Below, piece after piece: positions 13,813-14,473 of a stretch of DNA of 64,000 bases. Position 1 is the stretch's first letter. The number at the start of each line of letters is the position of its first letter. A program made the position numbers and the translations under genes. Under the pieces are notes generated by a model. It was not told the DNA's origin. It saw only the letters and a program-made list of their open reading frames with translations, and searched no databases. This DNA is from Lachnospiraceae bacterium (GTDB taxonomy: Bacteria; Bacillota; Clostridia; Lachnospirales; Lachnospiraceae), in assembly GCA_017470935.1 (NCBI GenBank), contig JAFUXG010000007.1, forward strand, positions 1 through 64,000. Direction: 5' to 3'.

Positions 13813-14287
13813 TTATATTCCCAACTCTTTATCAAAATTCTGTAAACTCGAAACTCTATATAACGGCTCCTTATGAACTCTTTTCTTTTTTGCAGCACGA
13901 ATATAACCCCTCAAGTATACTTGAAATTCATTTAGTATCGTTTCATAATTCTTTGAAATAATTCTGTACTGAGCATTAGGTATTTTTCGTTCTTCCTGCC
14001 ATTCAATATATTTATCATCATTTACTATTAGCGTATATCTGTAGTCAAGACCTGCGTTGTTTCTTTTATTTGATGGAATGGAATGGACCTATTCGTCCAA
14101 ATTTTCGTACTGCATCACCCAGATTATTTCTTAATGGAATCAGAAATCTGTTATTATTATTCTCAATACACAAACAAAGATGTGTTCGCTTTGATTGTTT
14201 ATCTGAATCACCTGTATCCAACATATTAATAAATGTTTTGTTTTCAATAAAATACTCTTTTCTAATAAAACAATATTTTATCTTCAT
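13813..14287 (-). pseudogene. Frameshifted type III toxin-like gene (TenpN/ToxN-like)
   Basis: The first frame encodes about 70 residues from ATG at 14287 (GAGGTGATTACAA upstream), including RFLIPLRNNLGDAVRKFGRI. A shift of one frame near 14072-14090 continues into about 85 more residues (NKRNNAGLDYRYTLIVNDD ... LGI) ending at TAA 13813. The joined protein of about 155 residues matches the size and PLR...GLDY...LIV pattern recalled for type III endoRNase toxins. The shift falls on a tandem CCATT repeat (14072-14086); gaining one 5-nt unit or losing two would restore the frame. Upstream repeats and a terminator support a type III locus. The family name is tentative. Confidence 0.6.
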
Positions 14288-14307
14288 TTGTAATCACCTC
14301 ACATAAA

Positions 14308-14329
14308 AAGGGAGCCGAAAGGCTCCCTT
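14308..14329 (-). terminator. Terminator between antitoxin RNA repeats and toxin gene
   Basis: A perfect 9-bp stem (AAGGGAGCC/GGCTCCCTT) with a 4-nt loop is followed on the minus strand by a T-run. In type III modules such a terminator sets the RNA antitoxin:toxin mRNA ratio. Confidence 0.85.
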
Positions 14330-14439
14330 AATCTCTTCAGCTTTTTTTAGACAGGTGCATCTGACGAACCCCTCACAATTTCTTCAGTTTTTTATGCCGG
14401 ATACTTCTGACAAACCTCCCAAAGAAGCATACGCTTCTA
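14330..14439 (-). ncRNA. Candidate type III antitoxin RNA with two tandem repeats
   Basis: Two tandem units of about 47 nt (14330-14376 and 14377-14423 in plus coordinates) share, in minus sense, a GGGGTT/AGGTTT, GTCAGA..C, run-of-A, CTGAAGA-ATT order with diverged bases between. A small 5' hairpin (AGAAGC-GTAT-GCTTCT, 14424-14439) precedes them and a terminator follows. A promoter sits immediately upstream and a toxin-like gene downstream. Order and spacing match ToxIN/TenpIN/CptIN loci, where the RNA repeat both folds and inhibits the toxin. Confidence 0.6.
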
Positions 14440-14444
14440 TAAGA

Positions 14445-14473
14445 ATAATACTTCTTATCCCAATCAAAGTCAA
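14445..14473 (-). promoter_or_regulatory. Sigma-70-type promoter of the antitoxin RNA
   Basis: TTGACT (14468-14473) and TATTAT (14445-14450) on the minus strand are separated by 17 nt, giving a predicted start near 14438 just before the repeats. Confidence 0.7.

What the first reader, a model, noticed from the sequence alone, without database searches (positions are those of the whole stretch)
13813..14473. Type III toxin-antitoxin-like locus with a frameshifted toxin
Minus strand, in order: TTGACT-17-TATTAT promoter, short 5' hairpin, two diverged tandem repeats of about 47 nt, a strong terminator, GAGGTG ribosome site and a toxin-like frame (PLR...GLDY...LIV). This is the full type III layout. 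The toxin needs one frameshift at a CCATT tandem repeat (14072-14086); a 5-nt unit gain or two-unit loss would repair it, so the gene is either dead or phase-variable. Seen: repeats, promoter, terminator, two frames. Inferred: family.
Basis: partly seen in the sequence, partly recalled or inferred. Interest (0 to 1): 0.8.

Follow-up and report, generated by a model that had tools for sequence, protein, structure and literature searches.

The report
RNA antitoxin kept, toxin gene broken
A bacterium carries a known kind of toxin-antitoxin pair in which a small folded RNA holds a toxin in check, but in this genome the toxin gene is broken while the RNA looks intact.

Summary
On the minus strand lie a promoter, a 5' hairpin, two ~47-nt tandem repeats, a terminator, a ribosome site and a toxin gene whose frame breaks once. 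The two toxin pieces, searched apart, match the TenpIN type III toxin model in line (3e-17 and 0.0035). Protein-based scans found 51 related loci: 46 of 51 carry two such repeats upstream, and 45 of the 49 not cut by a contig edge have an open toxin. Over 73 repeats both stems of an H-type pseudoknot covary (94% of cells paired). The family forms a clade apart from classic TenpIN toxins. The toxin breaks at the only triple pentamer in the 64 kb and shows no excess amino-acid change, so the break is recent, or an assembly error. Phase variation could not be tested. Most likely: a recently broken toxin with a still intact antitoxin RNA. Side result: Rfam's "6A" sRNA lies beside a TenpIN toxin or its remnant in 15 of the 18 genomes in which it passed its cut-off.

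The parts
14445..14473 (-). sigma-70-like promoter TTGACT-17-TATTAT
   Evidence: a pair scoring at least 9 of 12 in the same place in 44 of 47 loci, window included, shuffled mean 12.4
14423..14438 (-). 5' hairpin near the start of the antitoxin transcript
   Evidence: sequence; a hairpin of at least 5 pairs here in 40 of 47 loci, but this loose test also succeeds in a mean of 29 and at most 36 of 47 when shuffled, so conservation is only suggested
14382..14421 (-). antitoxin repeat 1, H-type pseudoknot; S1 14419-14417 with 14401-14399, S2 14410-14407 with 14387-14384
14335..14375 (-). antitoxin repeat 2, H-type pseudoknot; S1 14373-14371 with 14355-14353, S2 14364-14361 with 14340-14337
14308..14329 (-). 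intrinsic terminator between antitoxin and toxin
   Evidence: terminator-like site in 44 of 47 loci, shuffled mean 16.7 and at most 22
14295..14300 (-). GAGGTG ribosome binding site
   Evidence: sequence
14066..14287 (-). N-terminal piece of the TenpIN-like toxin (73 aa, the last few residues out of register)
13813..14088 (-). C-terminal piece of the toxin in another frame, stop to stop
   Evidence: (TenpIN 3e-17)
14073..14087 (-). tandem pentamer, three copies, at which the two frames part
12826..13812 (-). sensor histidine kinase; its ATG follows directly on the toxin frame's stop codon
14488..15249 (-). membrane protein, probable ABC permease, upstream neighbour
   Evidence: similar to the single permease between ABC ATPase and kinase in L035 and L036; no Pfam or NCBIfam family

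Best explanation
[quoted passage not shown] In the intact relatives the likely working is: one promoter makes a short RNA that carries two pseudoknots of about 47 nt; most transcription stops at the terminator; read-through makes a little toxin, an endoribonuclease that cuts the RNA into single pseudoknots and is held inactive by them. Here translation of the toxin would end after 73 residues, losing the C-terminal half with many of the invariant residues, so the antitoxin is probably still made without an active partner. Shown: parts, homology, covariation, frame break. Inferred: transcription, RNA processing, ribonuclease activity (from the known families), loss of activity.
For: Pieces collinear with the NCBIfam TenpIN model (N piece residues 30-57 on profile 19-46, C piece 5-88 on 58-141). 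Closest intact relative L085 is 76% (N) and 67% (C) identical. 41 of 41 intact relatives scanned (of 47 held) match TenpIN, and profile comparison with 14 of the 16 over-cut-off TenpIN toxins found gives 99% probability. 46 of 51 relatives have two repeats upstream of the toxin. Pseudoknot over 73 distinct repeats: 94.0% of cells paired against 81.8% in shuffles and at most 51.5% in slid registers; 7 of 8 pairs with changes on both sides against 4.6 in shuffles (1 of 500 as high). No amino-acid excess in the window toxin against L085 with 5 outgroups (window/L085 unique changes 7/17, 10/9, 7/13, 10/12, 12/10). The only triple pentamer in 64 kb sits at the break. No second TenpIN match in the host genome, which is 77.75% complete.
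Against: The pieces (17.6 and 63.1 bits) and L085 (79.8 bits) fall under the NCBIfam equivalog cut-off of 90 bits; Pfam and PADLOC do not call the pieces, Pfam gives the 41 relatives no shared family and PADLOC gives 1 of 41 a weak AbiQ match. One covariation measure does not exceed its control: 12 further pair types against 11.1 in shuffles (171 of 500 as high); the repeats are related and the structure was drawn from them. A fold without pseudoknots gives another structure. An assembly error at the tract is not excluded: no reads were at hand. Expression is not shown.
Confidence: 0.8

Rival explanations
1. The frame break is a sequencing or assembly error and the cell has a normal, working TenpIN-like system.
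For: Only one lesion; both pieces show no excess change; a short tandem repeat is a place where assemblers err (recalled).
Against: The rest of the 64 kb shows no other clear frame break: a codon-usage scan flagged 2 places among 50 coding segments, on inspection one a normal start and one a gene lacking its N-terminal part; the scan has limited power, since it did not flag the toxin either. The 7 kinase matches of this genome printed (of 16) have no inner stop. A second type III toxin gene of this genome has an inner TAG and matches only the first 114 of 159 profile positions.
Confidence: 0.2
2. A phase-variable (contingency) locus: slippage at the pentamer tract switches the toxin on and off. 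This would still be a broken copy in this assembly, so it overlaps with the best explanation.
For: The tract is the only triple pentamer in the window and lies at the break.
Against: Three units are few; 0 of 49 relatives has a triple pentamer in the toxin gene; the gain from switching a toxin whose antitoxin is always made is unclear (inference).
Confidence: 0.08
3. The RNA is kept after toxin loss because it protects the cell from TenpIN-like toxins of incoming elements. This adds to the best explanation rather than replacing it.
For: The RNA is intact while the toxin is broken here and in L084, L106 and, for the second repeat, L093; an analogous RNA ('6A') stands without a toxin in three species of one genus (L126-L128) and beside a toxin remnant in L113. 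Four relatives lie on viral contigs. A phage is reported to evade ToxIN by RNA mimicry (PMC3475682; title and start of abstract seen in a listing).
Against: A recent toxin break needs no such benefit: the RNA may simply not have had time to decay. In L092 a damaged toxin has no repeats upstream. Cross-protection is untested.
Confidence: 0.2

Closest known systems
TenpIN type III toxin-antitoxin family (NCBIfam NF047358)
   Same: Toxin homologous over its length; order promoter, tandem RNA repeats, terminator, toxin as published for type III systems (PMC5086642, passages and sections 5 and 17 read)
   Different: Separate from the 14 classic TenpIN toxins used (100/99 support; unrooted, so sister or inside is not told); below the 90-bit cut-off; by eye the repeats differ from those of the 12 classic loci printed; the toxin is broken in the window
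CptIN (CptI of Eubacterium rectale)
   Same: Two genetic repeats and a 45-nt H-type pseudoknot (PMC4627078, passages read) with a long A-rich loop (PMC5086642, passage)
   Different: The toxin profile matches no solved CptN or ToxN chain at E up to 1
ToxIN / AbiQ
   Same: Same genetic layout
   Different: ToxI repeats are 34-36 nt in 2.8 to 5.5 copies (PMC5086642 section 5); PF13958 does not match the window pieces at E up to 1 and finds another locus in this genome
Rfam RF02925 '6A RNA'
   Same: RNA of about 50 nt, often in tandem, upstream of TenpIN toxins
   Different: Other sequence; no 6A match in the window's genome at E up to 1
Candidate structured RNAs HMP2_3156 and HMP2_5421 (human microbiome screen, PMC8040213)
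   Same: Reported in Clostridiales or Leptotrichia directly upstream of 'ToxN' toxins and suggested to be antitoxins (passages read)
   Different: Their sequences are in supplements that could not be opened, so whether they include this subfamily is unknown

Membership tests
Type III toxin-antitoxin system, TenpIN family | toxin homologous to TenpN | tested here: met
   C piece 3e-17, N piece 0.0035; 41 of 41 intact relatives scanned
Type III toxin-antitoxin system, TenpIN family | score over the NCBIfam TenpIN equivalog cut-off (90 bits) | tested here: not met
   window pieces 17.6 and 63.1 bits; L085 79.8 bits; the best E of the 41 is 6.8e-25, by comparison with L085 about 88 bits (inferred). 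Hence filed as a TenpIN-like subfamily, not as a TenpIN equivalog
Type III toxin-antitoxin system | tandem nucleotide repeats upstream of the toxin | tested here: met
   two repeats; in 46 of 51 relatives, in two of them (L062, L093) one repeat is a weak hit
Type III toxin-antitoxin system | Rho-independent terminator between repeats and toxin | tested here: met
   44 of 47 loci, shuffled mean 16.7
Type III toxin-antitoxin system | antitoxin repeat folds as an H-type pseudoknot | tested here: met
   covariation of both stems, (from alignment; no probing; four of five measures exceed the shuffles)
Type III toxin-antitoxin system | complete toxin reading frame | tested here: not met
   open over the aligned range in 45 of 49 relatives not cut by a contig edge. 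The locus as assembled is a broken member
[quoted passage not shown]
   needs experiment
Type III toxin-antitoxin system | ToxN-like fold | not tested
Rfam 6A RNA | match to RF02925 | tested here: not met
   no match in the host genome at E up to 1

The most novel reading that the evidence does not exclude
Type III antitoxin RNAs outlive their toxins as stand-alone immunity RNAs: after the toxin is broken the pseudoknot RNA is kept because it neutralises TenpIN-like toxins of incoming phages and plasmids. The window, L084, L093, L106, the 6A locus with a toxin remnant in L113 and the toxin-less 6A RNAs of three species in one genus (L126-L128) would be stages of this.
Probability: 0.2. Interest if true: 0.6.

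Novelty: new member of a known kind. Interest (0 to 1): 0.42.

Why it matters
It outlines a TenpIN-like subfamily of Clostridia (many from animal gut samples by their record titles) that Pfam does not name, that PADLOC misses in 40 of 41 members, that stays under the NCBIfam cut-off, and whose RNA gave no Rfam hit in the loci scanned. It gives this subfamily a two-repeat pseudoknot antitoxin supported by covariation, which can now be searched for and tested. It shows natural loci with a broken toxin and a kept RNA, a way to ask whether antitoxin RNAs serve as immunity. In passing it gives a likely function to Rfam's 6A RNA, which the Rfam table lists only as an sRNA gene.

Tried and rejected
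Rfam at gathering score gave nothing in the window; at E up to 10, 14 matches in the 271 bases around the antitoxin, best E 0.012, all far below their gathering scores, set aside as chance. Pfam on the pieces gave only a weak group II maturase match, 0.0041, under its cut-off. PADLOC gave nothing for the pieces. PDB sequence searches gave nothing or unrelated chains. The C piece alone found no relative in genome contigs, and a single-protein scan of viral contigs found none; an alignment query was needed. Programmed frameshifting was dropped (inference): 45 of 49 relatives encode the toxin in one frame. dS was mostly saturated, so a relative-rate count was used. Ala in place of the conserved Ser before Gln in the C piece is not decay: four relatives with an open toxin have Ala there (L086, L088, L090, L091). 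A first claim that the 5' hairpin is conserved was weakened by its shuffle control (40 of 47 observed, mean 29, at most 36). The first repeat scans demanded pairing and were not counted; the rows come from a sequence-only profile, whose 13 seeds besides the window's two were taken from the pairing-filtered list, so some lean towards pairing remains. Of the 72 rows one (L068) was replaced by the identical window repeat 2, and L062 (E 0.75) was added, giving 73; two low hits (L093, L095) were left out, and hits from nine loci with the same DNA as others were skipped.

Full report
What was checked. Consensus promoters are cheap in this AT-rich DNA (6 found, 5.5 expected), the terminator is not (2 found, 0.3 expected).

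Toxin identity. The pieces were searched apart. NCBIfam matches both to TenpIN in line: the N piece (E 0.0035) on profile positions 19-46, the C piece (3e-17, 63.1 bits) on 58-141. Pfam and PADLOC call neither. In the host genome (75 contigs, 77.75% complete) this is the only TenpIN match.

Relatives. Of 26 genomes of the genus 5 have TenpIN matches, the window's included, and 28 of 397 genomes of the family. Two family hits (L021, L022) are of the window's subfamily, and a search with the L021 toxin over 392 genomes of the order gave matches in 14, among them L046, L047, L049, L050 and L060. An alignment of seven intact toxins then found 4 loci on viral contigs and 47 in named genomes, most of them titled Lachnospiraceae or other Clostridia, many from cattle, sheep, goat, deer, buffalo or horse samples; one is titled Selenomonadaceae. 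The nearest to the window is L085 (Lachnospiraceae isolate RUG14112), 76% and 67% identical to the two pieces.

The subfamily. 41 of the 47 intact toxins held (45 open relatives plus L022 and L050; near-copies left out) were scanned: 41 of 41 match NCBIfam TenpIN, L085 at 79.8 bits against a cut-off of 90; Pfam gives no shared family and PADLOC one weak AbiQ match. Against 14 of the 16 toxins over the TenpIN cut-off, profile comparison gives 99% probability at 22% identity, and a tree separates the 41 from the 14 with 100/99 support, unrooted and with an unsettled bootstrap. ToxN and CptN were not in the tree.

The RNA. A sequence-only profile built from 15 repeats finds two places in the window and nothing else in 64 kb. 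Of the 51 related loci 46 have two repeats upstream of the toxin; the five without are L076 (only 222 nt upstream held), L092 (toxin start missing), L109 (two repeats about 1.3 kb off on the other strand) and the contig-edge loci L110 and L112. In L062 and L093 one of the two hits is weak (E 0.75, 0.053), and in L079 and L093 the first repeat is interrupted. Counting the 46 and the window, a terminator-like site is found in 44 of 47 and a promoter-like pair in 44 of 47, against shuffled means of 16.7 and 12.4. A 5' hairpin of at least five pairs is found in 40 of 47, but shuffles give a mean of 29 and up to 36, so that test is weak.

The pseudoknot. In 73 distinct repeats, stems S1 (columns 3-6 with 20-23) and S2 (12-15 with 38-41) cross each other as in an H-type pseudoknot. 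94.0% of 584 cells pair (S2 99.3%, S1 88.7%) against 81.8% in shuffles; 7 of 8 pairs show changes on both sides (shuffles 4.6); sliding the partner by 1 to 3 columns gives at most 51.5% paired. The number of further pair types, 12, does not exceed shuffles (11.1; 171 of 500 as high), and the fourth S1 pair fails in 32 of 73. RNAalifold, which draws no pseudoknots, finds S2 on its own. The window's repeat 1 keeps S1 as GGA/UCC where most have AGG/CCU. A fold of the window RNA without pseudoknots gives another structure, z -2.34.

The break. The frames part at a triple pentamer at 14073-14087, the only such tract in the window (0.05 expected from 60 shuffles); 0 of 49 relatives has one in the toxin gene. 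Of 51 relatives 2 are cut by a contig edge; of the other 49, 45 are open over the aligned range and 4 are not: L084 with an inner stop, L092 lacking its start and its RNA, L093 not aligning past residue 135, L106 missing the middle in a changed frame. With L085 as sister and five outgroups the window toxin has no excess of amino-acid change (7/17, 10/9, 7/13, 10/12, 12/10). So the lesion is recent, or an assembly error. A codon-usage scan flagged two other places among 50 segments; neither proved a frame break, but the scan did not flag the toxin either.

Surroundings. The locus sits in an operon-like row: response regulator 18608-17835, YefM/YoeB pair 17708-17203, ABC ATPase 16964-16050 (best NCBIfam match lantibiotic protection ABC, 216 bits, under its cut-off of 310), two membrane proteins, the TenpIN-like locus, and a histidine kinase whose ATG directly follows the toxin frame's stop. 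In L035 and L036 of the same genus an ABC ATPase, one permease and a kinase 40-45% identical follow each other without it, so it looks inserted (inference). A ToxN-family gene elsewhere in this genome (L001) is also broken.

How it works. By published type III practice (PMC5086642, PMC4627078; passages and sections) the RNA would be made in excess, the toxin by read-through, and the toxin would cut and be bound by the pseudoknots. That is inference for this subfamily. Here the toxin would stop after 73 residues, so the RNA is probably an antitoxin without a partner.

6A RNA. Rfam's 6A hits lie just upstream of TenpIN toxins in loci found by the toxin. Searching by 6A alone, 18 different genomes passed its gathering score (3 of 397, 4 of 391, 11 of 344; the draws overlap in part). 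In 13 a full TenpIN match follows; in L113 a remnant; in L131 the toxin lies directly upstream; in L126-L128, one genus, there is none (L126 and L127 by profile only). Two matches below the cut-off (L116, L137) have no toxin.

In print. Structured RNAs upstream of 'ToxN' toxins in Clostridiales have been reported from human microbiomes (PMC8040213, passages) and may include this kind. For 6A, a search of the held library for '6A motif', '6A RNA motif' and 'RF02925' returned three papers, whose titles concern m6A methylation or protein expression in CHO cells; two wider searches showed no such term in the rows listed, which were capped. The paper I recall as the source of 6A is not held, so whether its link to TenpIN is already in print I cannot say.

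Noticed in passing
L003, L004, L017, L020, L051, L052, L113-L115, L118-L121, L126-L136: Rfam 6A RNA (RF02925) lies directly beside TenpIN toxins: of 18 genomes over its cut-off, 13 have a full toxin just downstream, one a remnant, one the toxin just upstream, three none. It is probably a TenpIN antitoxin.
   Followed up: partly
L126, L127, L128: 6A RNA without any TenpIN toxin match in three species of one genus; L128 shows two tandem copies and a terminator-like end: orphan antitoxin RNAs.
   Followed up: partly
L131:880-1620: Reversed order: the TenpIN toxin comes first and two 6A RNA copies follow after a promoter-like stretch of their own (by eye), unlike the usual antitoxin-first layout.
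   Followed up: no
L001:1380-1870 (G000 contig C71): A second type III toxin (PF13958 ToxN family) in the window's genome, with an early inner TAG and a shortened end; by eye a pseudoknot-like stretch lies upstream.
   Followed up: partly
L079:206-345 and L093:2298-2375: The first antitoxin repeat is interrupted by an insert in the A-rich loop before the second strand of S2 (in L093 an inverted repeat) while the second repeat is intact.
   Followed up: no
17203-17708: An intact YefM/YoeB type II toxin-antitoxin pair lies in the same operon-like row, between the response regulator and the ABC transporter.
   Followed up: partly
13810-13815: The kinase start codon directly follows the stop of the broken toxin frame, so loss of toxin translation could change kinase expression.
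   Followed up: no
52759-53448: Phosphoesterase-like gene that seems to lack its N-terminal part (begins near LKGNHE), probably cut short.
   Followed up: partly
21101-22348: Collagen-like protein with a long G-x-y repeat (GPQGPAGPQGETGAT).
   Followed up: no
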